From the NCBI RefSeq assembly GCF_963667775.1, contig NZ_OY764015.1, positions 1,567,168 to 1,631,167 of the forward strand: 64,000 nt of DNA, in the 5' to 3' direction. This DNA is from an uncultured Trichococcus sp. (GTDB taxonomy: Bacteria; Bacillota; Bacilli; Lactobacillales; Aerococcaceae). Under the pieces are notes generated by a model. That model worked only from the letters and a program-made list of their open reading frames with translations. It did no database searches and was not told where the DNA came from. Made by a program: the position numbers and the translations under genes. This document shows positions 2,868-46,615 of the stretch, one piece after another; position 1 is the stretch's first letter; the number at the start of each line of letters is the position of its first letter.

Positions 2868-3175
2868 GTCGACTGTTCGGCGTCCTTCGTTTTGCGTTCA
2901 GCAAACTGATTCGGTCGGTGTCGGCTGTTCGGTATTCTTCACTTCTCGTTCAGTCAACACATCGCGCGGGCGTCGGCTGTTCGGTATTCTTCACTTCTCG
3001 TTCAGTCAACACATCGCGCGGACGTCGGCTGTTCGGCGTTCTTCGCTTCTCGTTCAGTCAACACATCGCCCGGGCGTCGGCTGTTCGGTATTCTTCACTT
3101 CTCGTTCAGTCAACACATCGCGCGGGCGTCGACTGTTCGGCGTTCTCTACTTTGCGTTCGACCGACACCAACCAA
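2868..3175. repeat. Family B array 1: six units, exact 52-bp period
   Basis: The anchor GTCGGCTGTTCGG (or GTCGACTG) starts at 2868, 2920, 2972, 3024, 3076 and 3128, always 52 bp apart. Each unit carries a CGTTCAGTCAACA-type arm partly complementary to the next anchor, so a hairpin with a 13-nt loop can form across unit junctions. The array fills the gap between tRNA-Arg and the convergent alpha-galactosidase gene. Frames through it are open because the unit has few stops; they are not treated as genes. Confidence 0.9.
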
Positions 3176-9412: not shown

Positions 9413-10140
9413 TGTCGACTGAATGATTACCGAAAAACACAAAACACCAGACAGATCGCTCTTCTGTCGGGCGTCAGCCCAGGACGGTGACTTAGATACC
9501 CGAGAGTTCGCCTGTCTGTCGACTGAAACGTTACCGGAAATCAAAAAACACCAGACAAATCCCCCTTCTGTCGGGCGTCTGCCCAGGACGGTGACTCAGG
9601 TACCCGAGAGTTCGCCTGTCTGTCGACTGAATGATTACCGGAAACCATAAAACACCAAACAAATCGCTCTTCTGTCGGGCGTTAGCCCAGGACGGTGATT
9701 CGTTTACCCGAGACCCGGCGCAGCTATCGACTGTTTAGTTACCGAAAAGCATAAAATACCAGACAGATCGCTCTTCTGTCGGGCGTCAGCCTAGGACGGT
9801 GATTCGTTTACCCGAGACCCGGCGCAGCTGTCGACTGAACGGATACCGAAAAGCATAAAACACCCGACAGATCGTTCTTCTGTCGGGCGTCAGCCCAGGA
9901 CGGTATCTCTTTTACCCGAGAGTTCGCCTGTCTGTCGACTGAATGATTACCGAAAAGCACAAAACACCAGACAGATTGCTCTTCTGTCGGGCATCGGCCC
10001 AGGACGGTGACTCGTTTACCCGAGACCTAGTCAGTCTGTCGACTGATCGGATAGCGAAAACATCAAAACACCCGACAGATCGCTCTTCTGTCGGGCGTTA
10101 GCCCAGGACGGTATCCACAACACCCGAGAGTCCGCCAGTC
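9413..10140. repeat. Family C array: seven units, exact 104-bp period
   Basis: The anchor TGTCGACTGA (with variants) begins at 9413, 9517, 9621, 9725, 9829, 9933 and 10037, with the degenerate next anchor at 10141; every step is 104 bp. Each unit holds a hairpin of the CCGACAG-9 nt-CTGTCGGG type and a CCCGAGA box. The period is exactly twice that of family B, and both share the GTCGACTG word. It fills the gap between two convergent genes. Reverse-oriented copies occur near 15757, 18800-18905 and 32888-33100. Confidence 0.9.
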
Positions 10141-10167
10141 TATCTGCTCAACAGACACCCAACCACA

Positions 10168-10264: not shown

Positions 10265-11170
10265 CTATTCCTGCTGCGAAATATCTAATTGCAGCGGACC
10301 TTTAGATCTCACTTCCAAATAATACGAAAGTTCTTTTTCTAATTCGCTTATCAGCTTTGTATCTTCAATCGCGTTCAAAATAGCGTAAGCCTTCTCAATG
10401 TACTCAGAGCCTTCATCATTTTTCCCTGTTTTTTGTAAGATAAGTCCTTTTCTCGAGTAAGCAATCGCTAGTTGATTATATTTTTGATATTTCTTGCATA
10501 ATGAAATCACTTTTTCCAGGTACGAAAGAGCTTCAGGATATTTTTTATCATCGATCAGTAAAACAGATAAATTAATATCCAGATTAATCAATAGAACTTC
10601 AGCTTCCTTCAAATTATAGTAAGGGATTAATTGTTTCGTCGCTCTTTCACCAATGTTGACGGCTACATCAATCGGGAAAATAAACAAAATAGTGTTTATC
10701 AATCGGATATCCAGTAGATACCATCTGTCAAATTTCTCCAACCGCTCCCATATTTTCTTGGCAAATTGTTGTGCTTCCTCAACGTTTTTGGCTGTATTTA
10801 AAGCGATCAAACTTTCACATGCGTAGTAAAGGTTTCTTAACAAATAGTCGTCCTCTTCTTCTAAATAGGCAGCTATCTCATCTTTAACTAATTTCAAATC
10901 ATCCAGATGATTATAATTCAACGCGAAAAATTCATTGATCAGCTTTTCTTTTGTGGTCAAATTATCTGTATTCAGAATGTAGCGGAACTCATCCACTGAC
11001 ACATTCAGCTTCTCCAATATTGCCAACCATTTTTTGAAAGTAGGTTCTATTTCGTTTCTTTCTATTTTAGAATACGCTGATTGGCCCATAATGCCTTCTG
11101 CAACATACTGTTGAGAATAGCCTCTATCGACCCTGATTTCTTTAAGAACATCTCCGAAGTCTTTTTTCAC
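10265..11170 (-). CDS. PlcR/Rgg-like peptide-responsive transcriptional regulator
   Basis: A 301-residue cytoplasmic regulator. An N-terminal XRE helix-turn-helix (residues about 5-60, LKEIRVDRGYSQQYVAEGIM and SAYSKIERNEIEPTF) is followed by an all-helical C-terminal region (about 70-290) of TPR type, with repeats such as LSVLLIDDKKYPEALSYLEK and AIAYSRKGLILQKTGKNDEG. This is the layout of the RRNPP quorum-sensing family (Rgg, NprR, PlcR, PrgX); the size fits PlcR/Rgg. The GTG at 11170 is chosen: AAAGGAG lies 8 nt upstream, while the in-frame GTG at 11179 has no space. It is divergent from a 56-codon exported peptide gene, the classic partner arrangement. No sensor kinase is near. Confidence 0.85.
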   Translation of the reverse strand: MKKDFGDVLKEIRVDRGYSQQYVAEGIMGQSAYSKIERNEIEPTFKKWLAILEKLNVSVDEFRYILNTDNLTTKEKLINEFFALNYNHLDDLKLVKDEIAAYLEEEDDYLLRNLYYACESLIALNTAKNVEEAQQFAKKIWERLEKFDRWYLLDIRLINTILFIFPIDVAVNIGERATKQLIPYYNLKEAEVLLINLDINLSVLLIDDKKYPEALSYLEKVISLCKKYQKYNQLAIAYSRKGLILQKTGKNDEGSEYIEKAYAILNAIEDTKLISELEKELSYYLEVRSKGPLQLDISQQE

Positions 11171-14639: not shown

Positions 14640-15704
14640 ATGAAAATAAATGCACTCAAGAAAGAACTCGATGGCGTGCTGCCCGGCCTCGCCGCCAGCA
14701 TCGCCATCTCATTGGTCAGCCAATTTTTCGCCCGCTTCCTGCCGACGCTCGGCGCCGCTTTGATCGCCATTTTGTTGGGGATGCTGCTGGGCAACACGGT
14801 CCTGAACCGGCCGGAACTGGGCTCGGGCACGAAATTTTCCGAGAAACGGCTCTTGGAATACGCCATCGTCCTGAACGGGCTGATTTTGGATTTCCAGGTA
14901 CTGAAGTCAGCAGGGATCAAAGGCTTCGTCTTTATTATGCTGCAGATGGGGCTGACGATTTTTGTCACCTACCGGTTGGGCAAAGTCTTCGGCTTCGGCA
15001 AACGCTTCTCGCTGCTGATGGGCGCCGGCAACGCAGTCTGCGGCTCCTCTGCCATCGGGACCGTTTCGCCGATCGTCCAGGCCGACAACAAGGAAAAAGG
15101 CATCTCGATCACAATCGTCAACCTGACCGGCACCGCGCTGATGGTCCTGCTGCCTGTCCTGGGCGCCGTCCTCTACGGCAGTGACACGCTCCGGACATCC
15201 GCTCTGATCGGCGGCACCGTCCAATCCGTCGGCCAAGTCGTCGCCGCCGCCAAACTCGTCAATGACGACGTCGTCACGCTGGCGACCGTCTTCAAGCTGA
15301 TGCGCGTACTGCTGATCATCGGCGTCGCCGTCTTGTACGGGCGCATGAACATGAACGAAGGCGAATCTTTGTTCACACGCAAAAAACGCTCGGGGATTAC
15401 TGCCAGCGAAGAATCGGGAGCGTCCGCCAGCCCGGCCGCCGTCTCCTACGGCGTGCCGTGGTTCCTGACCGGATTCGTCGTCTTCTTCCTGATCCGCAGC
15501 TTCATCGGCGTCCCCGACAGCGCCCTGGTCGCCTCAAAAGCCATCAGCACCCAATTCGAAGTCGCCGCCCTCGCCGCAATCGGCATGCGCGTCAAATTCG
15601 CCGACATCATCAAAGAAGGTCCCAAAGCCATGCTTTATGGGTTGACCGTCGGCGCGGTGCAAGTTTTGATGGCCGTGGTGTTGATACGGGTGTTTTTCGG
15701 ATAA
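14640..15704 (+). CDS. yeiH: YeiH-family putative exporter (UPF0324)
   Basis: A 354-residue integral membrane protein of the UPF0324/YeiH family, proposed to export sulfate or related anions. About ten hydrophobic segments are visible, with the family-typical GAGNAVCGSSAIGTVSPIVQ motif near residue 135 and SVGQVVAAAKLVNDDV near 195. The ATG at 14640 follows AGGGAGG at a somewhat long 12-nt distance. It is divergent from a LysR regulator and ends at a strong terminator, so it is a one-gene unit. Function is known only by family; no transport data can be read here. Confidence 0.88.
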   Translation: MKINALKKELDGVLPGLAASIAISLVSQFFARFLPTLGAALIAILLGMLLGNTVLNRPELGSGTKFSEKRLLEYAIVLNGLILDFQVLKSAGIKGFVFIMLQMGLTIFVTYRLGKVFGFGKRFSLLMGAGNAVCGSSAIGTVSPIVQADNKEKGISITIVNLTGTALMVLLPVLGAVLYGSDTLRTSALIGGTVQSVGQVVAAAKLVNDDVVTLATVFKLMRVLLIIGVAVLYGRMNMNEGESLFTRKKRSGITASEESGASASPAAVSYGVPWFLTGFVVFFLIRSFIGVPDSALVASKAISTQFEVAALAAIGMRVKFADIIKEGPKAMLYGLTVGAVQVLMAVVLIRVFFG

Positions 15705-15711
15705 CTCCAAC

Positions 15712-15750
15712 AAAAAGCATCGGTTCCTGCGGGAGCCGATGCTTTTTTCT
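15712..15750 (+). terminator. Terminator of yeiH
   Basis: AAGCATCGG..CC and GG..CCGATGCTT arms (15715-15726, 15731-15744) followed by TTTTTT. Confidence 0.9.
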
Positions 15751-15756
15751 TTGCTA

Positions 15757-15800
15757 TTTCGCGATCTGTCGGGTGTTTTGTGGTTTTCGGTATCCAATCA
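15757..15800. repeat. Partial family C unit, reverse orientation
   Basis: GCGATCTGTCGGGTGTTTTG and TTTTCGGTATCCAATCA match the reverse complement of the 104-bp unit. Nothing else is seen up to 15965. Confidence 0.6.
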
Positions 15801-17383: not shown

Positions 17384-18691
17384 ATGAACAAAAAGGATTC
17401 CTTTTTAGAAAAACTGGACCGCATGCTGAGTCCGATAGGCACAAAAATAGGTAATCAAATTCATTTAAAAGCCATTTCCTCCGGTATGATGTTCGGGCTT
17501 CCCTTCATCGTTGTAGGATCGCTTTTCTTAATCTTTGCCAATCCAGCCATCAACATGGATCTGTATGACCCCGAGACGGCAAATATCTTCGTGCGCTTTT
17601 TGGCAGCCTGGAAAAACTTTGCCTCCGCAAACTACGAGCTGCTGACCGCGCCTTACAATATGACAATGGGGATTTTTGGTCTGATCTGTGCTTTCGGGAT
17701 CGCCTATTCCTTGGCTCGCGAGTACAAGTTGGACGCTGCCATGAACGGAATGATCTCGTTGGCGGTCTTTATGCTTGTGGTTGCAAGCAGCGTCGATGGC
17801 CAGATTTCAACTGAGTTTCTTGGCACAAACGGATTATTCGTTGCCATCATCATCGGATTGATCGTCGTGGAAGTATCCCGGTTGGTGGAAGTCCGGAACT
17901 GGAAGATTTCTATGCCGGATACGGTTCCCCCGGCTGTCACAGCGTTCGTCAATTCGATGCTGCCTTTATTTTTGAACATCATTTTGATTTATGGATTAAA
18001 TGTACTTATTATCGCATTGACCGGCAGCACCTTCCCGCAATTCGTCATGTTGTTGCTGACTCCTGCCTTAAGTTTTTCTGGAAACCTATGGGGATTCATC
18101 GCAATCGTCACATTCGGGAATTTTTTATGGCTTTTCGGAATCAACGGGACCTCCATCATTTTTCCGATCGTGTTTTCAATCGGAATCACAAATACCGGCA
18201 TCAACAGTGAATTGGTTGCCAGCGGTCAAGAGGCTACGGTTGCCATGAACCTGCAGATGTTCAGAATTTCTGTTTTGGGCGGTGCCGGCGGAACATTGGG
18301 CTTGATCATCTTGATGCTGCGCAGCAAGTTGGTTCATCTGAAGACGTTGAGCAAAATTTCAATTATCCCAGGCATCTGTGGTATCAACGAGCCCGTGATT
18401 TTTGGTTTGCCGATTGTCTTTAATCCAATCTTGGCGATTCCGTTCCTGCTGACACCGATCATCAATCTTGTTTTGACTTATTATGCCCAAGTAGCAGGCA
18501 TCATTTCGATGGGCTATATCATCGATCCGTCCTTTACGCCCTTCTTTGCGCAAGCTTACTTAGCCACGATGGACTTCAGAAACGTTCTCTTCTATTTTGG
18601 GCTGGTAGTTCTGAGCATCTTCATCTACTACCCGTTCTTCAAAGTCTATGAGAACAGCCTGAGCCGTCAAAGCGCTATGGAAAATCAGTAA
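17384..18691 (+). CDS. PTS EIIC, lactose/cellobiose family
   Basis: A 435-residue integral membrane EIIC subunit of the cellobiose/lichenan (CelB) family, which moves a sugar across the membrane while the partner EIIB phosphorylates it. Start motif LSPIGTKIGNQIHLKAISSG, around ten membrane segments, and the conserved GICGINEPVIFGLPIVFNP loop near residue 330 are clear. AAGGAGATG lies just upstream. No EIIA or EIIB gene is next to it, so it must borrow them from another locus. It is probably regulated by the RpiR protein at 15965. Substrate cannot be fixed from sequence. Confidence 0.9.
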   Translation: MNKKDSFLEKLDRMLSPIGTKIGNQIHLKAISSGMMFGLPFIVVGSLFLIFANPAINMDLYDPETANIFVRFLAAWKNFASANYELLTAPYNMTMGIFGLICAFGIAYSLAREYKLDAAMNGMISLAVFMLVVASSVDGQISTEFLGTNGLFVAIIIGLIVVEVSRLVEVRNWKISMPDTVPPAVTAFVNSMLPLFLNIILIYGLNVLIIALTGSTFPQFVMLLLTPALSFSGNLWGFIAIVTFGNFLWLFGINGTSIIFPIVFSIGITNTGINSELVASGQEATVAMNLQMFRISVLGGAGGTLGLIILMLRSKLVHLKTLSKISIIPGICGINEPVIFGLPIVFNPILAIPFLLTPIINLVLTYYAQVAGIISMGYIIDPSFTPFFAQAYLATMDFRNVLFYFGLVVLSIFIYYPFFKVYENSLSRQSAMENQ

Positions 18692-18717
18692 CAGCGAGAG
18701 CTTATTGCTGAATGAAC

Positions 18718-18775
18718 AAACCCCAGGCAGCCGCCTCTTCCATCGCGGGAGAGGCAGCTGCCTGGGGTTTTATTT
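18718..18775 (+). terminator. Strong terminator (composite module copy 1)
   Basis: AAACCCCAGGCAG (18718-18730) and CTGCCTGGGGTTT (18758-18770) close a stem extended inside by CCTCTTCC/GGGAGAGG. Related hairpins at 21879 and 30941 are followed by the same downstream words. Confidence 0.92.
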
Positions 18776-18779
18776 TGTT

Positions 18780-18906
18780 CAGTTGAAGAGCATGCATGTT
18801 GATCTAGGGTGTTTTGCGTTTTCGAAGGGCGATAGCCTGACAGATGTGGTTTCTCTCAGGTAAATCAGATACCCTCATGGGCTAACGCCCGACAGAAGAG
18901 CGATCT
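18780..18906. repeat. Composite-module tail with reverse family C unit
   Basis: GAAGAGCATGCATGTTGATC and CTAGGGTGTTTTGCG are followed by a reverse-oriented family C unit (CTAACGCCCGACAGAAGAGC). It runs straight into family B array 2. Equivalent tails follow the related hairpins near 21935 and 31000. Confidence 0.7.
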
Positions 18907-19365
18907 CTCGGCTCTTCGGTGTTTTTCACTCCTCGTTCAGCCGACATATCGCTCAGGTGTCGGCTATTCGGTGTTCTACGCTCTTCGTTCAGCCGACATA
19001 CCGCAACAGCGTCGGCTCTTCGGTATCTTCCGCTTCTTGTTCAGCCGACACATCTCGCTGGCGTCGGCTTTTCGGCATTCTTCGTTCTTCGTTCGGCCGA
19101 CATATCGCTCAGGCGTCGGCTGTTCGGTATCTTCCGCCCTTCGTTCAGCCGACATATCGCTCAGGTGTCGGCTCTTCGGCATTCTTCGTTCTTCGTTCGG
19201 CCGACATATCGCTCAGACGTCGGCTGTTCGGTATCTTCCGCCCTTCGTTCAGCCGACATATCGCTCAGGTGTCGGCTCTTCGGCATTCTTCGTTCTTCGT
19301 TCGGCCGACATATCGCTCAGGCGTCGGCTCTTCGGTGTTCTCCGATTTCCGACACTGGCGATCGA
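18907..19365. repeat. Family B array 2: nine units, exact 52-bp period
   Basis: The anchor GTCGGCT (first copy CTCGGCT) begins at 18907, 18959, 19011, 19063, 19115, 19167, 19219, 19271 and 19323: eight steps of exactly 52 bp. Perfect CAGCCGAC-13 nt-GTCGGCTG hairpins are present in several units; the other 23 nt vary more. It lies between the convergent PTS and toxin genes. All three forward frames stay open, which produces long artefact ORFs. Confidence 0.93.
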
Positions 19366-19417
19366 CCTATCCATATCAAGAAGTTTCTTCAGTGTGTTTA
19401 GCAATTTTGATCTATAG

Positions 19418-19714
19418 CTACTCAGCATTGATTCTATTTTCCGCTGTTTTATAAACTTCTTTTTTATCTCGTTTGCCGATTGCGACTATCTGGATAACCT
19501 CGATTTTTCCATTTATCTCCCGAAATACAATTCGAAGCCCCATTTTTTTGTTCTTCAACTTCCTACACTCGCTCAGTGAACCGTGTAATGCCTGTCCTGC
19601 TTGCATACCAGATTCTTTAATCCTTACAATAGCTTTGTCCACGAAAATCTTCTGACTTCCATCCAGAGAATCGTAATCCTGTTTCGATAACGCTGTCCAT
19701 TCTATCTTATGCAC
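19418..19714 (-). CDS. RelE/ParE-superfamily toxin
   Basis: A 98-residue toxin of the RelE/ParE fold: MHKIEWTALSKQDYDSLD at the start, LHGSLSECRKLKNKKMGLRI in the middle and VIQIVAIGKRDKKEVYKTA near the end, fitting RelE-type mRNA interferases, basic and compact. Start is GTG at 19714 behind GGGTGGG. It follows the antitoxin after a 3-bp gap, so the two are co-translated. It would cut ribosome-bound mRNA when the antitoxin is degraded. Chromosomal location beside repeats is typical of an acquired module. Confidence 0.85.
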   Translation of the reverse strand: MHKIEWTALSKQDYDSLDGSQKIFVDKAIVRIKESGMQAGQALHGSLSECRKLKNKKMGLRIVFREINGKIEVIQIVAIGKRDKKEVYKTAENRINAE

Positions 19715-19717
19715 AAA

Positions 19718-20038
19718 CTATTCCCACCCGTCATTCTCATCTATGGTAAGAAACTGATCAGCGTTGGCACCACGGACTTCTTCGTCCGAATATAGTTCTA
19801 AATCTTTGATAACTAAGCGTTTCTCTACTTCTAAGTCCAATACTCGCTCATGTAATACTTCGATTTCGTTTGTCAAAGATTCGTACTGTTCCTGCGTCAG
19901 CATAACGCCCGCAACAGCTCCACGATTAAAAACGTAGACAGGCGTGTTTTCTTCCTTAGCTTTTTTAAATACAATGGTTGGGGATTTTTTCACTTCAGAT
20001 ATGGAAGTGGTCGGGACGTCAAGAATTTTAAAGCTCAT
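19718..20038 (-). CDS. RelB/Phd-type antitoxin
   Basis: A 106-residue antitoxin. The N-terminus (FKILDVPTTSISEVKKSPTI, then VFNRGAVAGVMLTQEQYESL) is a Phd/YefM-like DNA-binding fold. The acidic C-terminal tail (about residues 60-106, ending TIDENDGWE) would wrap the toxin. The ATG at 20038 is chosen because GGAG lies 9 nt upstream; the ATG at 20047 has no room. It should neutralise the toxin and repress the operon. A related C-terminal codon string survives at 31286-31318. Confidence 0.85.
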   Translation of the reverse strand: MSFKILDVPTTSISEVKKSPTIVFKKAKEENTPVYVFNRGAVAGVMLTQEQYESLTNEIEVLHERVLDLEVEKRLVIKDLELYSDEEVRGANADQFLTIDENDGWE

Positions 20039-20063
20039 CTCTATCATCTCCTTAGTTTACCCC

Positions 20064-20093
20064 AGTATACACCGTTTAAAAATCTTTTAAAAG
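20064..20093 (-). promoter_or_regulatory. Candidate promoter/operator of the toxin-antitoxin operon
   Basis: On the minus strand TATACT (20064-20069) is a -10 candidate. A CTTTTAAAAG palindrome (20084-20093) lies where the -35 should be, a reasonable autoregulatory site. Confidence 0.4.
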
Positions 20094-20181
20094 TCTTTTG
20101 ACAATATTATTAATATAAAAAAGTCATTGCTTTAAAGGAATGAATGTTTATCACGCTGCGCGAACAGCCGGCTGGAGCCGG

Positions 20182-20612
20182 CATTGGTCCTTCGGTATCT
20201 CCACTCTTCGTTCAGCCGACACACCTCGCCGGCGTCGGCTGTTCGGCATTCTTCGCCCTTCGTTCAGCCGACATACCGCAACAGCGTCGGCTGTTCGGTA
20301 TCTTCCGCTCTTCGTTCAGCCGACATATCACGCAGGTGTCGGCTTTTCGATATCTTCCGCCCTTCGTTCAGCCGACATACCTCGCCGGCGTCGGCTGTTC
20401 GGCATTCTTCGCTCTTCTTTCAGCCGACATACCGCAACAGCGTCGGCTCTTCGGCATTCTTCGCTCTTCTTTCAGCCGACACACCTCGCCGGCGTCGGCT
20501 GTTCGGCATTCTTCGCCCTTCGTTCAGCCGACACATCGCTCAGGCGTCGGCTGTTCGGTATCTTCCGCTCTTCGTTCAGCCGACATATCACGCAGGTGTC
20601 GGCTGTTCATTC
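20182..20612. repeat. Family B array 3: eight units plus degenerate leader, exact 52-bp period
   Basis: GTCGGCT begins at 20234, 20286, 20338, 20390, 20442, 20494, 20546 and 20598, each step 52 bp; a degenerate unit precedes at 20182. The right end overlaps the last codons of the minus-strand NERD gene. It separates that gene from the antitoxin promoter. Confidence 0.93.
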
Positions 20613-21514
20613 ACTGGGATATAGTATCTGCAACTCTCGCTTCCTGCAGCCTGATATTCCCGCTTCAAAATCTTATAGACGCGATTTGTATCTTCCGTGC
20701 CACACCAATCCGCCAAACGTTTTGTTGTCAGTTTTTCATTTGGAAAGAGCGTATGGAAATCCGAAATGCTGTTGCTGATGGCTTTTTGTATGATCATCTT
20801 CTTCCCACAGCTTTCACACATATGGGAACGCCCACAAAAGTTATGCACGAGCAACCCACATGTTGGGCAAATAATGCCTTTATTCATTTTTTCGTACTCA
20901 TATTTGATCAATTTGCTTGGGTACTCAGGATCATGGCATTCGACAAGTGCTTGCGCCAACTTTTCCAATTCCGGATTTGTTACGGGTTTCATGTTTTGCA
21001 GTTCACGGAAATGCTCCGAAATCTGCCCAGGAAGAATGCTGTCACCCTCATATGGAGCTCCCCAGATTGAAAATTCTGGATTTACGTATACTATGAATGC
21101 TTCAATTTCCATCGAATAGCCCAAGCTCTTCAGCAGCTTCCTCAGCCTTACTTTTGTTTTCGTTAGCTGAAGGGAAGGATTTTCCAAAGTAGTGCCAGAT
21201 TGCTTCATAAATTCTTCCGGCCCCCAGTGGTGTACCCCACCGTAATTTTTGATTTCATATAACACTATTTTACCTTCACAAATAAGCAACGCATCTATTT
21301 GCAATGAAGAACGTCTAATTTCCAACTGCAAATCATTCAGAACAATACATTTCGCCCCCAGTTTTTCTGTCAGACCATCAAATCGGCACTCACCCTCATA
21401 TCCTTTTTTCAGATTGAGGTAGTAATAATAATCTTCTTTATCCAATCGCATACGGCTCGCTAAAATTTCATAAATACGTAAATTCATAGATTTTGTGCGT
21501 TCCTTAAATGCCAA
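20588..21514 (-). CDS. NERD (nuclease-related) domain protein with zinc ribbon
   Basis: A 308-residue protein. A NERD domain (about residues 35-150) shows GYEGECRFDGL, QIDALLICEGKIVLYEIKNY (D..and E-x-K, as in restriction-type nuclease cores) and later a Cys4-type zinc ribbon (CPTCGLL...CESCGKK, about 225-250), then a helical tail. NERD proteins are suspected DNA-processing enzymes, but activity is unproven. TTG at 21514 has GGAGGCGG 8 nt upstream; an in-frame TTG at 21529 and ATG at 21487 are alternatives. The final codons (NEQPTPA) and stop come from the family B repeat, so the original 3' end may have been replaced. Confidence 0.75.
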   Translation of the reverse strand: MAFKERTKSMNLRIYEILASRMRLDKEDYYYYLNLKKGYEGECRFDGLTEKLGAKCIVLNDLQLEIRRSSLQIDALLICEGKIVLYEIKNYGGVHHWGPEEFMKQSGTTLENPSLQLTKTKVRLRKLLKSLGYSMEIEAFIVYVNPEFSIWGAPYEGDSILPGQISEHFRELQNMKPVTNPELEKLAQALVECHDPEYPSKLIKYEYEKMNKGIICPTCGLLVHNFCGRSHMCESCGKKMIIQKAISNSISDFHTLFPNEKLTTKRLADWCGTEDTNRVYKILKREYQAAGSESCRYYIPVNEQPTPA

Positions 21515-21653
21515 TACATCCGCCTCCAATATTTCTTTTCGAAGGTAATATACGCATAATGTGCTGTAAAGCTTCTATATTAGAGGCAGCGGTTATTATT
21601 TATGGAACCCAAAGTATGTTTCTACGTAAACGAGGTGTGGTGCCGCATCATGC

Positions 21654-21862
21654 GTCGGCTGTTTGTTTTCCTTTGCCCTTCGTTCAGTCGACGATTTTTA
21701 TTTTTGTCGACTGTTCGGTATTCTTCACTCCTCGTTCAGTCAACACATCGCGCGGGTGTTGACTGTTCGTTATCATCCAATTTCAGTTCAGTCAACACAT
21801 CACGCTTCCGTCGGCTCTTCGGTAACATTCGTGCTTTGTTCAGCCGACATTCATGCTTTTCA
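21654..21862. repeat. Family B array 4: four units, exact 52-bp period
   Basis: Anchors at 21654 (GTCGGCT), 21706 (GTCGACT), 21758 (GTTGACT) and 21810 (GTCGGCT), each 52 bp apart although the sequence has diverged. Positions 21530-21653 hold nothing else that I can support. Confidence 0.88.
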
Positions 21863-21878
21863 GATTTATACGTACTAA

Positions 21879-21965
21879 AAAAGCAGCTCCCTCATCCATC
21901 ATTGGAGAGGCGGCTGCCTGATTTTTGTTTATTTGAAGAGCAGATATGTTGTTCTAGGGTGTTTT
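21879..21965. repeat. Composite module copy 2 (decayed hairpin plus tail)
   Basis: GCAGCTCCCTC and GAGAGGCGGCTGC arms resemble the terminators at 18718 and 30941, with mismatches in the left arm. A T-rich stretch and the tail TTGTTCTAGGGTGTTTTGCG follow, then family B array 5. No gene lies immediately upstream, so it is not needed as a terminator here. Confidence 0.65.
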
Positions 21966-22010
21966 GCGCTTTCTATAGGCGTTAGCCCGTGACATGCATA
22001 CCGCGTGGCC

Positions 22011-22215
22011 GTTGGCTTTTCGGTGTTCTTCGATTTTCGTTCAGCCGACATACCTCGAAGGCGTCGACTGTTCAGCATTCCCCACTCCTCGTTTAGTCAA
22101 CACATCGCGCGGGCGTCGGCTGTTCGGTGTTCTCCGCTTTTCGTTCAGTCCACACATCAGGATTCCGTCGGCCCTTCGGTAACATCCGTTCTTCGTTCAG
22201 CCGACATTCATGTTT
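22011..22215. repeat. Family B array 5: four units, exact 52-bp period
   Basis: Anchors at 22011 (GTTGGCT), 22063 (GTCGACT), 22115 (GTCGGCT) and 22167 (GTCGGCC), each 52 bp apart, ending in a CAGCCGACATTCATG arm shared with the end of array 4. Confidence 0.88.
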
Positions 22216-22266
22216 TTCTGGATTATACGGCTACCTGTTCGATACATTTTTTTATGATGTTATTTT

Positions 22267-23832
22267 TCAAACTATCCCATATTTCCGGAACAGATAGCAA
22301 GGTGTACAGCTCCAGGCGTGGCAATAGCTGTTGATCATTTCGTCTCCGTAAGGAGAGAATGTTACGTCCTCGGGATAATAGACTTCCCAGAAGGTGTCGG
22401 CGCCGTTTTCGACCATGCCGCCCCAATACAGTTTGATGATGCGGATTGCTTCATCGCGGAATCCTTCTTGCAACAGAGCTTCCACGTAATGATGGTACAT
22501 GTAAGGCGAATTGCATCCGACAACTGATTCAGCATCCAGAGCCAGCAAGTTTTCCAATACTTTCCTGCGCAGATCTGCATCGCCGGCTTCGGCCAGCAGC
22601 ATCCACGTCTGCGAAGGGATCGCGATCTGTCCGCTCGTCGGATCCACGAACAGTCCTTTTTCTTCATTGTAGTAGGTGCTCAACGCATACTGCTCCAAGG
22701 CTTGGATTTTGACGTCCAGCTCTTCAATCAGCTTGTTGTCTTCCATATAGGCGGCCAATTCTTTCAGTCGTTTATATGAGTATATGAAAATGCCCTGGAT
22801 GGCGATTTGCTTGTCCAGCGGTTCGTTCCAATCGATGAAGGCCCACCAGCCTTCCGGCACGTTGACTTCCCCGGTTGGCAAAACATTATCCTCCAACACA
22901 CGCAGTTGCGCGACGGCTGTGGCGTAGAGATCGGTCAACGTATCCTTGTCGTTCGTCTCGCGGTAATAGTCCAATAAAGTGTCGATGAAGAACAGACTGT
23001 AGTCCGCCAAGAAGGTATCGTCCGGGATCAATCTTGGCTCGATGAAGACATTCGCGGATACTTGCCCTTCGCTGGTCGTTTGGGCCGCAAAGAGATAGAG
23101 GCATTTCTTGACCAAATCATTGGCTCCGAAAGTGGCGTAATTCGCCAAGGCCTGCAGTCTCAGATCGCCCAGCCATAAGCGCCTGTCCCTTTTCGGTCCG
23201 TCCTCGAATACGTCCTGCATGCATTGCATCAGCGTCTTCTGCGAAACCCTGTCGATCTCCTGCAGCAATTGATCGTCGGTTTCCAACTGCTGCATTTTTG
23301 CCTTATCGGCGGAACTTTCTGTCGTGCAGCTCAGCTTCAGGTTGATCTGGTACTTAGGGGACGTGTCCACCACTTCGATCTTCAGGTAGCGGAAGGAGAA
23401 TCGGTGTTTGAGCTCCAGGGTTTCCGGAAGCACATCGACCGTCAACAGTTCCTCCTGAAGCCAGGAAGCGCTCAATTCGCCTTTGTAGCTGTCGAACGAA
23501 CGGATCACTTCAATCGGCGTCTCGCCGAAGGACAGCCGCAATTTTGCGGGTGCATCCGGTGGGCTGCCCAAGGATGTGATTGCGAGCGACACCCTGCCGA
23601 CGCAGTGCTCGCCGAAATCGACGATCACCTGCTCTTTGCGGTCCATCCGGATGCCTTCGTTGGGATCGTATCCGGCCACTTCGACCAGCTCGTTTGCGGA
23701 CTCTGGCGCCTCGGCAACGATTCTTTTTGGCAGCACTTGTTCGTGGTACATCTCAATTTCAATCTGTTTGATTTTCTCTTCGAATGCTTCATTCGTGATG
23801 AAACGGATGTCAGGGTTGGTTTGGAACTCCAT
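22267..23832 (-). CDS. GH78-like alpha-L-rhamnosidase-family protein
   Basis: A 521-residue cytoplasmic protein with an N-terminal beta-rich region (about 1-165) and a C-terminal six-hairpin alpha/alpha barrel. FEDGPKRDRRLWLGDLRLQA is the GH78 catalytic-site signature, and DTFWEVYYPEDVTF with SYCHAWSCTPCYLF matches the barrel end of rhamnosidase-like enzymes. It is shorter than many GH78 enzymes, so substrate may differ from simple rhamnosides. No signal peptide. It is the last gene of the ABC importer operon and overlaps the DUF624 gene by 23 bp, so it likely hydrolyses the imported oligosaccharide. Confidence 0.82.
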   Translation of the reverse strand: MEFQTNPDIRFITNEAFEEKIKQIEIEMYHEQVLPKRIVAEAPESANELVEVAGYDPNEGIRMDRKEQVIVDFGEHCVGRVSLAITSLGSPPDAPAKLRLSFGETPIEVIRSFDSYKGELSASWLQEELLTVDVLPETLELKHRFSFRYLKIEVVDTSPKYQINLKLSCTTESSADKAKMQQLETDDQLLQEIDRVSQKTLMQCMQDVFEDGPKRDRRLWLGDLRLQALANYATFGANDLVKKCLYLFAAQTTSEGQVSANVFIEPRLIPDDTFLADYSLFFIDTLLDYYRETNDKDTLTDLYATAVAQLRVLEDNVLPTGEVNVPEGWWAFIDWNEPLDKQIAIQGIFIYSYKRLKELAAYMEDNKLIEELDVKIQALEQYALSTYYNEEKGLFVDPTSGQIAIPSQTWMLLAEAGDADLRRKVLENLLALDAESVVGCNSPYMYHHYVEALLQEGFRDEAIRIIKLYWGGMVENGADTFWEVYYPEDVTFSPYGDEMINSYCHAWSCTPCYLFRKYGIV

Positions 23833-24478
23833 ATTTATTTATGTCCTTTCTGCTGTTATGAAATAGGCCGTGCAGGCACATGATGGCTGCCCCGAAAACG
23901 AAGATGATCGCCATATAGGACAGCTTGAAGGAAGCAGCGACACCCAGGACAACCATCACTAGCACGGCTGCATTTTTCAGGAAATTTGGCAGGTATGTTG
24001 CCAGAGTTTGTTTCAATAGATTCCGTCCCTTGAAAGAAATGGCTTCCCTGCCAAGATTGATGCCGAAGCTCATTTCGAAGACGATTAAAACGATGTTCAT
24101 CGCATACAGAAGATACGTGATTGGGCCGGTCACGGCTGACACATATAGGGTGGTCAGGCCGAGGTAGAAAGCCAACGTCAAAAGCGCCGACAGATGCATT
24201 TCTTTCCTCAGCGTGAACCGCAGCTCCCTCAGGTAAATCCCGAAGATGCCGGAGCTGTTCCCCCCTTTCAATGCATGCGCCGTCCGCAGCAAGGCCAGGA
24301 TGCTGGGCATGAGCGTGAGGCTGGTCAACAGGTAAATCGGGAAGAACACGACTTTGAAATCAAACAGGAAGAACACTTGGAAAAAGAAGGCGTTCGTCAC
24401 CAAGAACAGGGTGTTCAGGATGATCACGCGATAAAATAAATCGAACAATCCCATCAGTTTTGTCAGTCGGTCATTCAC
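23810..24478 (-). CDS. DUF624 (YesL-like) membrane protein
   Basis: A 222-residue integral membrane protein of the DUF624/YesL family, with about five hydrophobic segments (for example VIILNTLFLVTNAFFFQVFF). YesL-like genes accompany rhamnogalacturonan or other oligosaccharide importers in Firmicutes, but their role is not known. It lies 6 bp after the MalG-type permease and overlaps the GH78-like gene, so it is firmly part of this operon. Another DUF624 gene occupies the same place in the arabinan-type locus (52912). Confidence 0.85.
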   Translation of the reverse strand: MNDRLTKLMGLFDLFYRVIILNTLFLVTNAFFFQVFFLFDFKVVFFPIYLLTSLTLMPSILALLRTAHALKGGNSSGIFGIYLRELRFTLRKEMHLSALLTLAFYLGLTTLYVSAVTGPITYLLYAMNIVLIVFEMSFGINLGREAISFKGRNLLKQTLATYLPNFLKNAAVLVMVVLGVAASFKLSYMAIIFVFGAAIMCLHGLFHNSRKDINKYGVPNQP

Positions 24479-24484
24479 GAGTCA

Positions 24485-25312
24485 TCATCCTTTCACTGCG
24501 CCTGCCGAGATGCCGCCTATGAAATACTTCTGCAGTACCGAGAACAGCGTTATCAATGGAATGGCGCACAAAATACAGGCGGCGAAGAGGACGCTCCACT
24601 GGGCGGGATTCTCTTTATCGCCCAAGAAGTTCAGCATCGTGACCGGCAGACTCATTTCAGCCTGTTTGTTTACGAAGATCAGCGGGTAAAAATAGTCATT
24701 CCAGATCCAGATGCCTTGCGTGATCACGACGGAAACGGTCGCTGGTGCAAGCAGAGGGAAGACCATCCGGAAAAAGCGTGTGAAGAGATTGGCCCCATCC
24801 AGATAGGCCGATTCTTCTATTTCAGGCGGGACGCTGCGCATGAACCCCGTGTATAAAAAGGTCGAGAACGGGATGCTGCAGGTGATGAACATGATCATGG
24901 GCGTAAAGCGATTGCTTGGGATGCCGATTGTGCTGAACACTTGCGCGATCGGAATGATGACCATCTGACCAGGAATGACCAATCCGGAAATAAACAGGAT
25001 GTAGAGCGCTTTGCTCAGTTTGCTGTTGATTCTGCCTAATGGGTAAGCTGCCATCGCCGCCAACAGGACGACAATCACGACACTGCCTATCGTCGTAATC
25101 AAACTATTCATGAAGGATGTCATAAAATTCATCTTTTCAAATGCCACACGATAGCTTTCGAAGGAAATATCCGAAAACAGCATCAGGGGTGAAGACGTGT
25201 CCCCTGGGCTTTTCAAGGAAGTCGATAAGGCGATGGCAAGAGGTGATAAGGTAACCAATAAGAATAGGCTCAAGCCGATGTGGACTGCTAAATTGCTGGA
25301 TTTTTTACTCAT
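24485..25312 (-). CDS. ABC sugar importer permease, MalG type
   Basis: A 275-residue inner-membrane permease with about six hydrophobic segments. The EAA loop (EIEESAYLDGANLFTRFFRM, about residue 165) contacts the ATPase. It forms a heterodimer with the MalF-type permease, whose stop codon it overlaps by 4 bp. No ATPase gene is in the operon, so a shared MsmK/MsmX-type ATPase elsewhere is expected. Substrate is an oligosaccharide by context. Confidence 0.92.
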   Translation of the reverse strand: MSKKSSNLAVHIGLSLFLLVTLSPLAIALSTSLKSPGDTSSPLMLFSDISFESYRVAFEKMNFMTSFMNSLITTIGSVVIVVLLAAMAAYPLGRINSKLSKALYILFISGLVIPGQMVIIPIAQVFSTIGIPSNRFTPMIMFITCSIPFSTFLYTGFMRSVPPEIEESAYLDGANLFTRFFRMVFPLLAPATVSVVITQGIWIWNDYFYPLIFVNKQAEMSLPVTMLNFLGDKENPAQWSVLFAACILCAIPLITLFSVLQKYFIGGISAGAVKG

Positions 25313-26259
25313 TCCATCTCACTCTCTTTCTTGGACATAAATACCAGCAGCACTGCCGTTATGGCAATGATGACGATAAATGAGACTACCGAAAAGGCGG
25401 CTGCTTTGCCGAATTGTTGTTCCGTGAAGGCCATCTTGTAGATCGAGAACATCAAGGTGTTCGTCGAATCCCCAGGCCCGCCGTTCGTCATGATGAAAGG
25501 ATAGTCGAAGGCTTTCAGGCCGTTGATGACGTTCAGAATGACATTGATTGTGATGGAAGGCGCCAACAAAGGGATTTTGACATGACGGATCGCTTGCCAC
25601 CCAGTGCAGCCGTCCATTTCAGCGGATTCCATAACAGAATTGTCGATCGTCTGCAGGCCAGCCAAGTAAATGATCATCGTCTGCCCTACATTCTTCCAGA
25701 CGTCTACAAGTGTAATTCCGTAAAGTGCCTTGCCGTAGTCGCCGAGGACGTTGAAACTACTGCCATCCAGCCCGAACAGGTTCATCACGGAAGCGATCAA
25801 GCCGGATTCAGGCATGTACACATAGCTCCAGACAAACCCGATGACGATGGCGCTGAAAAGTGCCGGGATGTAGGCTGCCGATCGGTAAAAAGCCATGCCT
25901 TTGATTTTGCTGTTCAGGGCAAATGCCAAAATGAGTGCTAAAAGATTGCCGCCGATCACAAGCAATGCCGTATAGGTCAAGGTGTTCCCAATCGAGTTGA
26001 ACAGGATTCCGGATTCAAAAATCGCTCTGAAATTGTCGAATCCCACATTATTGTAGTTCAGGTTAAATCCGTTGAAGTCCGTCACGCTGTAAGTGAACAG
26101 CTTCAGAAAAGGCCAAATCCAAAAAGTGCCGAATACTGCCAGAGCAGGAATAACAAACAGATACATGCGATTATTCATGACCAGAGATTGGTTCTTTTTG
26201 AACAGGAAGCTGATTGCCTTCTTTTTTGGAGCGGCTGTAGTCGTTTGCTTCAGTTCCAT
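25309..26259 (-). CDS. ABC sugar importer permease, MalF type
   Basis: A 316-residue permease with an N-terminal cytoplasmic tail, about six membrane segments and the EAA loop (MESAEMDGCTGWQAIRHVKI, about residue 215). It is the partner of the MalG-type protein. The ATG at 26259 is favoured: AAAGGATGA precedes it by 8 nt, whereas the ATG at 26271 lies within that site. A hairpin separates it from the upstream binding-protein gene. Confidence 0.9.
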   Translation of the reverse strand: MELKQTTTAAPKKKAISFLFKKNQSLVMNNRMYLFVIPALAVFGTFWIWPFLKLFTYSVTDFNGFNLNYNNVGFDNFRAIFESGILFNSIGNTLTYTALLVIGGNLLALILAFALNSKIKGMAFYRSAAYIPALFSAIVIGFVWSYVYMPESGLIASVMNLFGLDGSSFNVLGDYGKALYGITLVDVWKNVGQTMIIYLAGLQTIDNSVMESAEMDGCTGWQAIRHVKIPLLAPSITINVILNVINGLKAFDYPFIMTNGGPGDSTNTLMFSIYKMAFTEQQFGKAAAFSVVSFIVIIAITAVLLVFMSKKESEME

Positions 26260-26289
26260 TTTATGATTCATCCTTTCTTTATAAAGAAT

Positions 26290-26322
26290 GTTCCGGAGAG
26301 GCCTTTTTGGTCTCCCCAGAAC
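26290..26322 (-). terminator. Intercistronic hairpin after the binding-protein gene
   Basis: GTTC.GGAGAGGCC (26290-26303) and GGTCTCC...GAAC (26309-26322) pair without a long T run. Such hairpins usually stabilise or partly terminate mRNA so that the binding protein is made in excess over the permeases. Confidence 0.55.
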
Positions 26323-26346
26323 AAGCTTTCATTCATTCAAGTTCGT

Positions 26347-27633
26347 CTATTTCAGTTCTTCAAATTTCTTCTGCATCGCTTCAGCGACTTCTTCAGGCGT
26401 GACTTTGCCTGTTCCGATCATCTCGCTGAATTTGGATTGCATTTCCGTTTCTGTCCCGGCTGGCCATGCTTGGTTGCACCAGTAGAAGGATTGACCTGCT
26501 TCAAATGCTGGCACGACATCGGCAAACACTTCATTGCTCAACTCTACGCCTTTGTAGGTTGAAAAAGAGGTAGCTGTAGCAGCCCAAGCCTGATGCAATT
26601 CGGATGATCCGTCCGTCATCTCATTGAAAACGTCCTTCAGCATCTCTTTGTGCTCGCTCTGTGAACTGATTGCATAGCCCGCGCCGGTTGCGGCTGCGAT
26701 ATACGTTTCCCCTTCATCATTAGCCGGCATTCCCATGAAGCCAAGGTTGAATGAAGCATCTTCCAAAGCCGGATAACTGAAGTCACCGTCAAAGAGCATC
26801 GCTGCTTTTTGATCCATGAACAATTGCTGTGCTTGCGGTTGACCCAAGCCAAGGGAGTTGTCGGTCACATAGCCTTTGTCGTACAACTCTTTGTACATTG
26901 TGATTGTGTTGACCCACTCTTCGTCGGTGAAGTTCGTGTCACCTGTGTAGAGCTGGTTGTCGAACTCCGCATTGTTAGGATACACTTGGTTGGCTGCAAT
27001 CTGGTACATCCCGAATTGGATCATGTAGGAATCCTTGTCGCCCATCACGATTGGAGTGATACCGGCTGCCTTCAGTTGTTCGCAGGCATCCAGGAATTCT
27101 TTCCAGTTTGTCGGAATCGCGATGTTGTTCTGCTCGAACAAGTCCTTGTTGTACCATGTTCCCAGTACCCCGACACTGCTGGACAAGGCGTAAGGCTTGC
27201 CTTCATAGGACATATCAGCTTTCGCCTGATCGATCAGGTTGTCCCAATTATCCAGACCAGAAAGATCTTCGATATAGCCGGCTTCCGCCATTTCCTCAAC
27301 GGAACTTGCGCTGGCTTTCTTAGGTTGGACTAAAAACAAATCAGGAGATTGCCCGGTGGACAGTTTGCTTTTCAAAGCTGTGTAATACTGGTCGTCAGGC
27401 AACAGTGTCGTTTCTATCGTATAGTCAGGGTATTGTTTTTCGACCAACTCTTTGAATGATTCCAAAAATACTCCCTGCGACCCGTCCTTTACTCCGGAAG
27501 CCATTACTGTGATCGTTTTTTCGCCACTGTCCGCCGCAGCAGAGTCATCGGCGCTGCCGCCACCGTTCCCACAAGCAGCAAGCACACCCATTGAAGCAAT
27601 AGCCAAAGCCGACAAACGTAAAATCCTTTTCAT
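26347..27633 (-). CDS. ABC sugar-binding lipoprotein
   Basis: A 428-residue solute-binding lipoprotein of the carbohydrate family 1. The signal peptide ends in VLAACG with lipidated Cys21; a Ser/Asp-rich linker follows, then the two-lobed domain (YPDYTIETTLLPDDQYYTAL near residue 70; NWKEFLDACEQLKAAGITPI near 160). It captures the oligosaccharide outside the membrane. GGAGG precedes the ATG by 7 nt. It is the first gene of the operon and is divergent from the YesM/YesN system, which probably activates it. Confidence 0.93.
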   Translation of the reverse strand: MKRILRLSALAIASMGVLAACGNGGGSADDSAAADSGEKTITVMASGVKDGSQGVFLESFKELVEKQYPDYTIETTLLPDDQYYTALKSKLSTGQSPDLFLVQPKKASASSVEEMAEAGYIEDLSGLDNWDNLIDQAKADMSYEGKPYALSSSVGVLGTWYNKDLFEQNNIAIPTNWKEFLDACEQLKAAGITPIVMGDKDSYMIQFGMYQIAANQVYPNNAEFDNQLYTGDTNFTDEEWVNTITMYKELYDKGYVTDNSLGLGQPQAQQLFMDQKAAMLFDGDFSYPALEDASFNLGFMGMPANDEGETYIAAATGAGYAISSQSEHKEMLKDVFNEMTDGSSELHQAWAATATSFSTYKGVELSNEVFADVVPAFEAGQSFYWCNQAWPAGTETEMQSKFSEMIGTGKVTPEEVAEAMQKKFEELK

Positions 27634-27698
27634 TTTGATTCCTCCATTTCTTTTATAGTCTTATCATAATTTAGATTGAGTAATTTTTTTTCTTATTT

Positions 27699-27733: not shown

Positions 27734-27740
27734 TCTGTAC

Positions 27741-30926: not shown

Positions 30927-30940
30927 AGCATGCTTGACAA

Positions 30941-30991
30941 ACCAGGCAGCCGCCTCATCCATTATTGGAGAGGCGGCTGCCTGGGTTTTGT
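30941..30991 (+). terminator. Strong terminator (composite module copy 3)
   Basis: ACCAGGCAGCCGCCTC (30941-30956) and GAGAGGCGGCTGCCTGGG (30968-30985) pair, then TTTTG. It is nearly identical to the hairpin at 18718 although the genes upstream are unrelated. The tail GAAGAGCATATATGTTGTTC and CTAGGGTGTTTTG follow. Confidence 0.9.
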
Positions 30992-31071
30992 ATATTTGAA
31001 GAGCATATATGTTGTTCTAGGGTGTTTTGTGCTTTCGATGGGCGTTAGCCCGACATACATGCCGTGTGGGC

Positions 31072-31272
31072 GTCGACTGTTCGGTGTTCTTCACTTCTCG
31101 TTCAGTCGACATACCGCGCCGGCGTCGACTGTTCGGTATCCTTCACTTCTCGTTCAGTCGACACATCGCGCCGGCGTCGACTGTTCGGTATTCTCCGCTC
31201 TTCGTTCAGCCGACACATCACACTTCCGTCGGCTTTTCGGTAACATTCGTTCTTCGTTCAGCCGACAGCCCC
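31072..31272. repeat. Family B array 6: four units, exact 52-bp period
   Basis: Anchors at 31072, 31124 and 31176 (GTCGACT) and 31228 (GTCGGCT), each 52 bp apart. Within the units CAGTCGAC arms pair perfectly with GTCGACTG across a 13-nt loop. It follows composite module copy 3 directly. Confidence 0.92.
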
Positions 31273-32887: not shown

Positions 32888-33103
32888 ATGTGGCGGGCTG
32901 GCGCCCTCGGGTAAATCAGATACCGGCCTGGGCTATCGCCCGACAGAAGAGCAATCTCTCGGGTATTTTGCGGTTTTCGGTATCCAATCAGTCGACAGAC
33001 TGGTGTGCCCTCGGGTAAACGAGATACCGTCCTGGGCTAACGCCCGACAGAAGAGCGATCTGTCTGGTGTTTTGCGGTTTCCGGTGACGATTCAGTCGAC
33101 GAC
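32888..33103. repeat. Two reverse-oriented family C units, 104 bp apart
   Basis: CCCTCGGGTAAA begins at 32904 and again at 33008, exactly 104 bp later. Each unit carries CGCCCGACAGAAGAGC and a TTTTGCGGTTT tail. In this orientation the hairpin plus T-rich tail resembles a terminator. Confidence 0.88.
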
Positions 33104-46466: not shown

Positions 46467-46615
46467 GTCGGCTGTTCGGTTTCCTTCGGTTGGCGTTCAG
46501 CAAACTGATGCGGGTAGCGTCGGCTGTTCCGCATCCCTCGTTTGACGTTCAGCAAACAAATTCGGCTTTCCTCGGCTGTTCGACGGCTTCCACTTTGCGT
46601 TCAGTCGACAAGAAG
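46467..46615. repeat. Family B array 7: three units, exact 52-bp period
   Basis: Anchors at 46467 (GTCGGCTGTTCGG), 46519 (GTCGGCTGTTCCG) and 46571 (CTCGGCTGTTCG), each 52 bp apart. The first is preceded by a matching CAGCCGAC arm at 46447. The units share CGTTCAGCAAACTGAT-type arms with the first unit of array 1. It lies between convergent genes. Confidence 0.88.

What the first reader, a model, noticed from the sequence alone, without database searches (positions are those of the whole stretch)
18907..19365. Exact 52-bp tandem hairpin arrays (family B), seven in one window
Seven arrays (2868-3175, 18907-19365, 20182-20612, 21654-21862, 22011-22215, 31072-31272, 46467-46615) share one unit. 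I measured start-to-start distances for 38 anchors, and every step within an array is 52 bp, even where sequence has diverged. A typical unit is a 29-nt hairpin (CAGCCGAC, 13 nt, GTCGGCTG) plus a 23-nt linker. Conserved length with drifting sequence suggests that geometry, not sequence, is selected. No protein or repeat-associated gene for it is visible. Possible roles include chromosome architecture, protein phasing, transcription termination or RNA decoys.
Basis: seen in the sequence. Interest (0 to 1): 0.85.

Follow-up and report, generated by a model that had tools for sequence, protein, structure and literature searches.

The report
Rigid 52-bp repeat lattice between genes
Bacteria of one genus carry, in the gaps between their genes, rows of a short inverted DNA motif placed at rigidly fixed distances (13 and 23 bases, 52 per unit) while the bases in between change freely, which suggests docking sites for a still unknown DNA-binding protein.

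Summary
All seven family-B arrays have exact 52-bp steps. The window's 104-bp "family A" arrays sit on the same lattice.

The unit is a pair of inverted half-sites (about YGTCGRCTG) spaced 23 and 13 bp. With spacing left free, 102 of 109 whole-genome matches in 11 same-genus genomes have exactly 23 bp, and 69 of 75 listed have exactly 13. The 39-mer occurs in 10 of 11 same-genus genomes and in 0 of 384 others of the order.

Neighbouring units differ at about half of their loop and spacer bases. Yet only 4 of 147 intervals deviate in length, against about 73 expected at the intergenic indel rate. Arms diverge about 2.6 times more slowly. No covariation shows in either hairpin register. Arrays are rare between divergent genes (2 of 77).

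Best reading: a BIME-2-like protein-docking lattice in duplex DNA, perhaps topological or architectural. The protein is unknown. An orientation bias (40 of 44) is unexplained.

"Geometry, not sequence, is selected" is mostly right, though the half-sites are conserved too. The hairpin itself is not supported.

The parts
2868..3166 (+). Array B1, 6 units of 52 bp, between convergent genes
9414..10128 (-). Family A array (104 bp = two lattice units), same 23/13 lattice, arms partly diverged
18718..18770 (.). Strong terminator-like hairpin (24-nt arms) beside array B2; start of a shared terminator-leader module
18723..18842 (+). Terminator-leader module shared with B5 and B6 (81% identity to B6's)
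18907..19361 (+). Array B2 (the finding), 8 complete units and a truncated ninth
20182..20605 (+). Array B3, 8 units (the first with a decayed left arm) and a terminal half-site; overlaps the 3' end of ORF 20588-21529
21654..21848 (+). Array B4, 4 units
21883..22011 (+). Second copy of the terminator-leader module (88% identity), between B4 and B5
22011..22205 (+). Array B5, 4 units
30940..31072 (+). Terminator-leader module in front of B6
31072..31266 (+). Array B6, 4 units
32906..33100 (+). Family A array (about 2 x 104 bp) on the 52-bp lattice
46467..46609 (+). Array B7, 3 units; an upstream arm completes a perfect hairpin with the first half-site

Best explanation
The arrays are a duplex-DNA docking lattice. 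Each 52-bp unit carries two inverted half-sites (core GTCGRCTG, extended about YGTCGRCTGWWCG). The half-sites are separated alternately by 23 and 13 bp of freely evolving DNA. SHOWN: conserved arms, free loop and spacer sequence, near-invariant lengths, no detected compensatory base pairing, conserved unit order between genomes, genus restriction in the collections searched, and placement 3' of genes with rarity between divergent genes. INFERRED: one multimeric sequence-specific DNA-binding protein (or a topoisomerase recruited as at E. coli BIME-2) occupies successive half-sites. Because 52 bp is close to five helical turns (52/10.4-10.5), each unit presents the same DNA face, which would explain the intolerance of small insertions. 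Four units (eight half-sites, 195 bp) is the commonest size. SPECULATIVE: by sitting in the gap between operons the lattice acts as an architectural or topological insulator between neighbouring transcription units, enriched where converging polymerases trap positive supercoils.
For: Spacing left free: 102 of 109 matches at 23 bp over 11 genomes; 69 of 75 listed (81 counted) at 13 bp; in fetched loci 80 of 83 and 63 of 64. Of all 8-mers in 786 kb of fetched DNA, 9 had 10 or more inverted pairs; 8 belong to this element with 69-100% at one gap, and the ninth, from another hairpin family, has 70%. Length deviants: 4 of 147 seen, about 73 expected from 220 gaps per 2438 substitutions in intergenic DNA of the same loci. 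Arms 0.128 against loop 0.338 and spacer 0.339 per-column divergence over 118 unit pairs from 31 array pairs; columns 9-11 and 28-31, not used to find units, lie at 0.00-0.16. No covariation. Neighbours of 77 classified arrays: 31 convergent, 44 codirectional, 2 divergent, against 10/68/31 in 109 array-free gaps of the same loci (Fisher 1e-6 and 6e-7). BIME-2 elements, tandem units of inverted REPs, strongly bind DNA gyrase (PMC2817692 Background).
Against: No binding protein was identified and nothing here tests binding. The orientation bias relative to codirectional genes (40 of 44; 10 of 10 arrays, in 9 gaps, in this genome) is not predicted by a symmetric DNA function and hints at something transcription-related. 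At one pair position observed Watson-Crick pairing slightly exceeds the non-partner level (0.56 against 0.49), while at another, in the other register, it is below (0.65 against 0.75), and an earlier arm-level comparison was slightly positive (+0.022, +0.047). Arrays are related by descent, so counts are not independent events. The helical-phase argument for left versus right half-sites depends on which bases are contacted; only the 52-bp translation is robust, and one near-integer value is weak evidence. One genome of the genus (G006, 100% complete) has no exact lattice match (one weak 2-mismatch unit in L129). Family A keeps the lattice with strongly altered half-sites.
Confidence: 0.5

Rival explanations
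1. RNA hairpin array: the arrays work as transcribed stem-loops (mRNA 3'-end protection, attenuation, protein or RNA decoy).
For: Inverted arms in nearly all units; both strands of the two arrays tested fold better than shuffles (B3: z -8.0 and -9.0; B1: z -4.3 and -4.8). Strong orientation bias relative to codirectional genes, 40 of 44. In 35 of 79 arrays a terminator-like hairpin lies downstream in the sense direction, so these could be inside a 3' UTR.
Against: No covariation in either register. G-U and A-C pairs are equally frequent (0.074/0.074 and 0.077/0.077), though an RNA would tolerate G-U. Consensus fold only -3.5 kcal/mol. No Rfam family matches the arrays. An RNA hairpin does not need fixed 23- and 13-nt unpaired stretches. 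In 42 of 79 arrays a terminator-like hairpin lies upstream in the sense direction. The low fold z-scores are expected from inverted arms alone.
Confidence: 0.17
2. Auxiliary unidirectional terminators: in array orientation the hairpin is followed by a T-rich loop, so arrays stop antisense or read-through transcription from one side.
For: Array-orientation bodies hold terminator-like calls in 33 of 79 arrays, sense bodies in 4 of 79. Orientation opposes the codirectional genes in 40 of 44, so antisense RNA would meet them.
Against: Weak U-tracts; independent strong terminator-like hairpins already lie near many arrays. The generic terminator scan of 17500-32900 finds 16 against 15.7 in shuffles. 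Terminators need neither a 52-bp period nor invariant 23- and 13-nt lengths, and stems do not covary. The criteria are ad hoc and have no shuffled null.
Confidence: 0.15
3. Selfish or neutral repeat: a non-autonomous mobile element and its tandem duplicates, tolerated downstream of genes, with constant length only because tandem copying preserves length.
For: Position bias (3' of genes) is what parasitic repeats show: BOX, RUP and IS in pneumococcus (PMC3049150 passages) and REPs (PMC3733652). B2, B5 and B6 share a duplicated terminator-leader module. Unit number varies between orthologous loci.
Against: Neighbouring units have diverged about 40% while length deviants are about 18-fold fewer than the local indel rate predicts. 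Arm-flanking columns not used for detection are slow. In the 31 array pairs accepted, units match best at equal rank, which speaks against homogenisation, but this was partly an acceptance rule. Y1 transposases do not track arrays: G004 has arrays and none, G006 has six and no exact lattice. No copies found in viral contigs, plasmids or phages.
Confidence: 0.18

Closest known systems
BIME-2 / REP elements (enterobacteria and others)
   Same: Tandem units built of inverted palindromic motifs, extragenic, predominantly at convergent or codirectional 3' ends; BIME-2 strongly binds DNA gyrase.
   Different: No invariant GTAG or CGTC tag; half-sites rather than complete 20-40-bp palindromes; near-invariant 52-bp lattice with freely evolving interior; found in one genus of Lactobacillales; Y1-type transposase does not track.
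Pneumococcal BOX elements (boxA-boxB(n)-boxC)
   Same: Modular intergenic repeats with a variable number of inner modules, enriched between convergent genes (passages).
   Different: No terminal modules common to all arrays were seen here; BOX is predicted to fold as an RNA, while here stems do not covary and spacing is rigid. BOX sequences were not aligned to these.
Intergenic minisatellites / VNTR (MIRU-type; recalled, no call)
   Same: About 50-bp tandem units between genes.
   Different: Here neighbours differ at about 40% of bases while length stays fixed, and matched arrays of different genomes keep unit order.
CRISPR arrays
   Same: Palindromic repeats at regular spacing.
   Different: The 23-bp intervals share family sequence and diverge by substitution; more than 20 short arrays in this genome. 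CRISPR-Cas of the genus is described separately (PMC6950789 passages).

Membership tests
BIME-2 / REP | Alternately inverted palindromic motifs in tandem units | tested here: met
BIME-2 / REP | Extragenic, 3' of genes, rare between divergent genes | tested here: met
   2 of 77 arrays divergent against 31 of 109 array-free gaps; PMC3733652 section read
BIME-2 / REP | GTAG or CGTC tag at one end | tested here: not met
   column 52 before GTCG is T 0.49, C 0.42, so CGTC is not invariant; no GTAG in the column consensus
BIME-2 / REP | Associated RAYT / Y1 transposase | tested here: not met
   (Pfam Y1_Tnp, RAYT not told apart from IS200): G004 has arrays and none; G006 has six and no exact lattice match
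BIME-2 / REP | Gyrase (or IHF, Pol I) binding | not testable with these tools
   needs pulldown or cleavage mapping
BOX elements | Terminal modules boxA/boxC around boxB repeats | tested here: inconclusive
   a terminator-leader module precedes only some arrays; BOX sequences were not compared directly
Structured RNA family | Covarying stem or Rfam match | tested here: not met
Intrinsic terminator | GC-rich hairpin followed by U-tract | tested here: inconclusive
   33 of 79 array-orientation bodies, 4 of 79 sense bodies; region scan equals shuffles
CRISPR array | Conserved repeats with unrelated spacers and adjacent cas genes | tested here: not met
   interval sequences are homologous between units; no cas family among the 20 window ORFs scanned (other ORFs not scanned)

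The most novel reading that the evidence does not exclude
A genus-specific chromatin-like system: an undiscovered oligomeric DNA-binding protein reads an ordered lattice of eight inverted half-sites (four 52-bp units, five helical turns each) and wraps or bridges the DNA between operons, making a sequence-encoded architectural insulator in a bacterium.
Probability: 0.25. Interest if true: 0.85.

Novelty: new variant of a known kind. Interest (0 to 1): 0.62.

Why it matters
Bacterial intergenic repeats are often treated as parasitic hairpins. Here the lengths of freely evolving DNA are kept fixed while the inverted arms are kept as sequence and stems do not compensate. That is the signature of protein docking on duplex DNA, and it makes the long-open question of what extragenic palindrome arrays do directly testable. 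One pulldown with correct and phase-shifted arrays could name the protein.

Tried and rejected
Terminus or dif hypothesis: the window looked mid-genome, but a dif-like site is at 715,752 and GC skew in the samples changes sign between 0.66 and 0.83 Mb and between 2.31 and 2.48 Mb, so the window is mid-replichore. Rejected.

RNA hairpin covariation in both registers, with GU/AC asymmetry: no support (position-wise mixed, see evidence against).

RAYT/IS200 mobilisation: Y1_Tnp does not track. Viral, plasmid and phage carriage: no match (one exact pattern in viral contigs, one 431-bp query in the other two).

Replication-strand orientation was considered by eye for arrays of this genome: convergent arrays are about evenly split, so transcription rather than replication seems the relevant axis. 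This was not computed in a call.

Invalid or weak analyses, told for completeness. The line '52-lattice arrays same method' is invalid, because the global alignment slid onto itself; it is not used. Blastn alignments of orthologous arrays (274 gaps per 4020 substitutions) and forced alignment of adjacent units (221 gap openings per 4687 substitutions, 268 pairs) show gap rates of 0.068 and 0.047 per substitution, against 0.090 in intergenic DNA. I read these as alignment noise at high divergence, since the units are all exactly 52 bp, but they do not by themselves support the indel deficit, which rests on measured interval lengths. One search leaves out nearest-partner distances above 46 (F to R) and 36 (R to F); its printed list shows these are mostly 65 and 75, the lattice with one decayed half-site. 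The expected 73 of 147 assumes a star phylogeny, a Jukes-Cantor correction and the 0.090 rate. Long-period control arrays gave 25 gaps per 429 substitutions. One search's pairing null is confounded by array-end arms. The backward-pattern control is not independent, because GTCGGCTG reads the same backwards. A5 and one search were built from chains of exact 52-bp steps, so their lack of gaps is partly by construction.

Papers: searches listed no description of these repeats; the Trichococcus genomics paper PMC6950789 has no occurrence of 'repeat' in its main text (passages only). The library is open-access only. Searches were seen as listings; from them only the papers named in the report were opened.

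Full report
OBSERVATION. The seven arrays are real, at the stated coordinates, and every step between called units in them is 52 bp. The unit is GTYGRCTG - 23 bp - CAGYCRAC - 13 bp. The window's 104-bp arrays at 9414-10128 and 32906-33100 lie on the same lattice: GTCGACTG-23-CACCMGAC-13-GTCGGGCG-23-TACCCGAG-13 (read from the sequence; lag 104).

HOST AND RANGE. The window is part of a 3.3-Mb single-contig genome. An exact scan of the genome collection (84,980 species) hit 12 stretches: 10 titled Trichococcus, 2 titled Sedimentibacter sp. SX930. Twelve of 13 same-genus genomes, this one included, match array DNA. The fixed 39-mer is in 10 of 11 same-genus genomes (this one included) and in 0 of 384 other genomes drawn from the order. 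Viral contigs, plasmids and phages gave none. In this genome, 52- or 104-bp arrays also occur near 0.11, 0.22, 0.29, 1.33, 1.40, 1.43, 1.55, 1.67 (two), 1.73, 2.43, 2.87, 3.21 and 3.31 Mb. They are denser around the window; a spaced sample of 387 kb held none, though two of its stretches were cut short beside known array loci.

GEOMETRY, MEASURED WITHOUT IMPOSING IT. Allowing 31 gap lengths, the pattern GTYGRCTG-N{8,38}-CAGYCRAC has 109 matches in the 11 genomes common, and 102 of these have exactly 23 bp (whole counts). Of the 75 rows listed (113 counted over 13 genomes), 71 have 23. The reverse pattern has 81 matches; of the 75 listed, 69 have exactly 13 bp. In the fetched loci the nearest-partner gaps are 23 bp in 80 of 83 and 13 bp in 63 of 64 (exact half-sites, longer distances left out; with one mismatch allowed, 226 of 278 and 195 of 234, the rest spread widely). 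A survey of all 8-mers in 786 kb found nine with ten or more inverted pairs; eight are parts of this half-site, with 69-100% at one gap length; the ninth belongs to another hairpin family (70%). Most of the fetched loci were chosen for having arrays, so measures spacing, not frequency.

LENGTH CONSERVED, SEQUENCE NOT. Neighbouring units differ on average at 20.7 of 52 positions (268 pairs), at 9.5 of 19 loop positions and 6.6 of 13 spacer positions. Intergenic DNA of the same loci shows 220 gaps per 2438 substitutions. That predicts about 73 of 147 intervals of altered length, and 4 are seen. Off-lattice steps do exist (L064, L066, L132, L134, L138, L154). One search holds 81 arrays with 349 units: 34 have four units, 22 three and 12 two. 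Thirty of the 34 four-unit arrays, from ten genomes, align in 196 columns with one internal gap (left out: the family A array at 32906, the loosely called chain at 46415, and the chains in L119 and L131). Chains were built on exact 52-bp steps, so these two show layout and cannot test spacing.

CONSTRAINT. Between matched arrays of different genomes (31 array pairs, 118 unit pairs; arrays recur in several pairs, some pairs are paralogous, and pairs above 30% mean divergence were excluded) per-column divergence is 0.128 in the arms, 0.338 in the loop middle and 0.339 in the spacer. Arms helped to find the units, which favours this result. Columns 9-11 and 28-31 were not used and are slow as well (0.04, 0.02, 0.16, 0.12, 0.13, 0.04, 0.00). 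Units match best at equal rank, but the acceptance rule also demanded this. Several arrays are at orthologous sites, and their unit number varies.

NOT A SELECTED STEM. Registers with 23- and 13-nt loops give 85.3% and 86.4% paired cells against 85.4 and 86.6 in shuffles, with no excess of double changes. G-U and A-C are equally common. The consensus fold is -3.5 kcal/mol. Position by position the picture is mixed but small: one arm pair clearly above its non-partner level (0.56 against 0.49), the others about equal or below. The two arrays folded singly do better than shuffles on both strands, as any inverted repeats would.

PLACE AND DIRECTION. Of 77 classified arrays, 31 are between convergent, 44 between codirectional and 2 between divergent genes, against 10/68/31 for 109 array-free gaps of the same loci (gene calls by a codon-bias script; of the 81 arrays, 3 at edges and 1 overlapping an ORF are left out; a few gaps hold two arrays). 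Among codirectional cases the array orientation opposes the genes in 40 of 44, and in 10 of 10 arrays (9 gaps) of this genome. Orthologous loci make these counts non-independent. Taking the sense strand as the one opposite to array orientation, terminator-like hairpins lie within 250 bp upstream in 42 of 79 arrays and downstream in 35 of 79; on the other strand upstream in 48 and downstream in 35; inside the array-orientation strand in 33 and inside the sense strand in 4 (2 of 81 arrays too near a locus end were dropped; no shuffled null). Arrays are thus often beside terminators, but upstream and downstream differ little. B2, B5 and B6 share a terminator-leader module with other array sites of the genus (10 of 13 genomes match it).

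MECHANISM. Conserved inverted half-sites, rigid distances, free interior sequence and absent compensation point to recognition in duplex DNA. The 52-bp step is about five helical turns, so each unit shows one face. Centres of the 8-bp cores are 31 and 21 bp apart, about three and two turns, but this depends on the contact points assumed. BIME-2 offers the nearest functional parallel: tandem inverted REPs that strongly bind gyrase (PMC2817692 Background), with placement like REPs (PMC3733652 abstract and one section). A topological or insulating role at convergent ends is therefore proposed, not shown. The orientation bias is the main fact this reading does not explain; a polar barrier or weak antisense terminator would.

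KNOWN OR NEW. It resembles BIME-2 in architecture and BOX in modularity (PMC3049150 passages), but fails the tag and transposase criteria of REPs and the stem covariation expected of RNA elements. No paper found describes it (open-access library only). I rate it a new variant of a known kind, with a distinctive rigid lattice.

Noticed in passing
L088:6322-7104, 10108-11070, 14793-15764; L092:11640-12447: Another family of long-period hairpin arrays (168/169 and 188-190 bp, rich in CTCCGGCGA) with 1-bp period jitter; a natural contrast to the 52-bp lattice.
   Followed up: partly
L075:1684-1918: A 51-bp tandem array of a different hairpin (GAATTCCCGGCGAACGGC...) near a diverged 52-bp lattice array.
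   Followed up: no
codirectional arrays across the genus: Array orientation opposes the flanking codirectional genes in 40 of 44 cases (10 of 10 in this genome); unexplained.
   Followed up: partly
L135:1989-3067: A 21-unit array in which two unit types alternate (104-bp super-period) in one relative.
   Followed up: no
44717-45073: Y1_Tnp (IS200/IS605-type) transposase match in the window; the family does not track the arrays in the genus.
   Followed up: partly
19418-20047: Possible type II toxin-antitoxin pair between arrays B2 and B3: sub-threshold PhdYeFM antitoxin match (28.0 against 29.8 bits) and a 98-aa neighbour without Pfam match.
   Followed up: no
20588-21529: NERD-domain protein gene whose 3' end overlaps the end of array B3.
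   Followed up: no
   Followed up: partly
L132, downstream of the array: A short-unit AAATCTAC-type tandem run, long in one relative and nearly absent at the orthologous site of others.
   Followed up: no
genome C1:715752: Exact match to a recalled B. subtilis-type dif pattern at the GC-skew switch: the terminus is near 0.72 Mb and the window is mid-replichore.
   Followed up: yes
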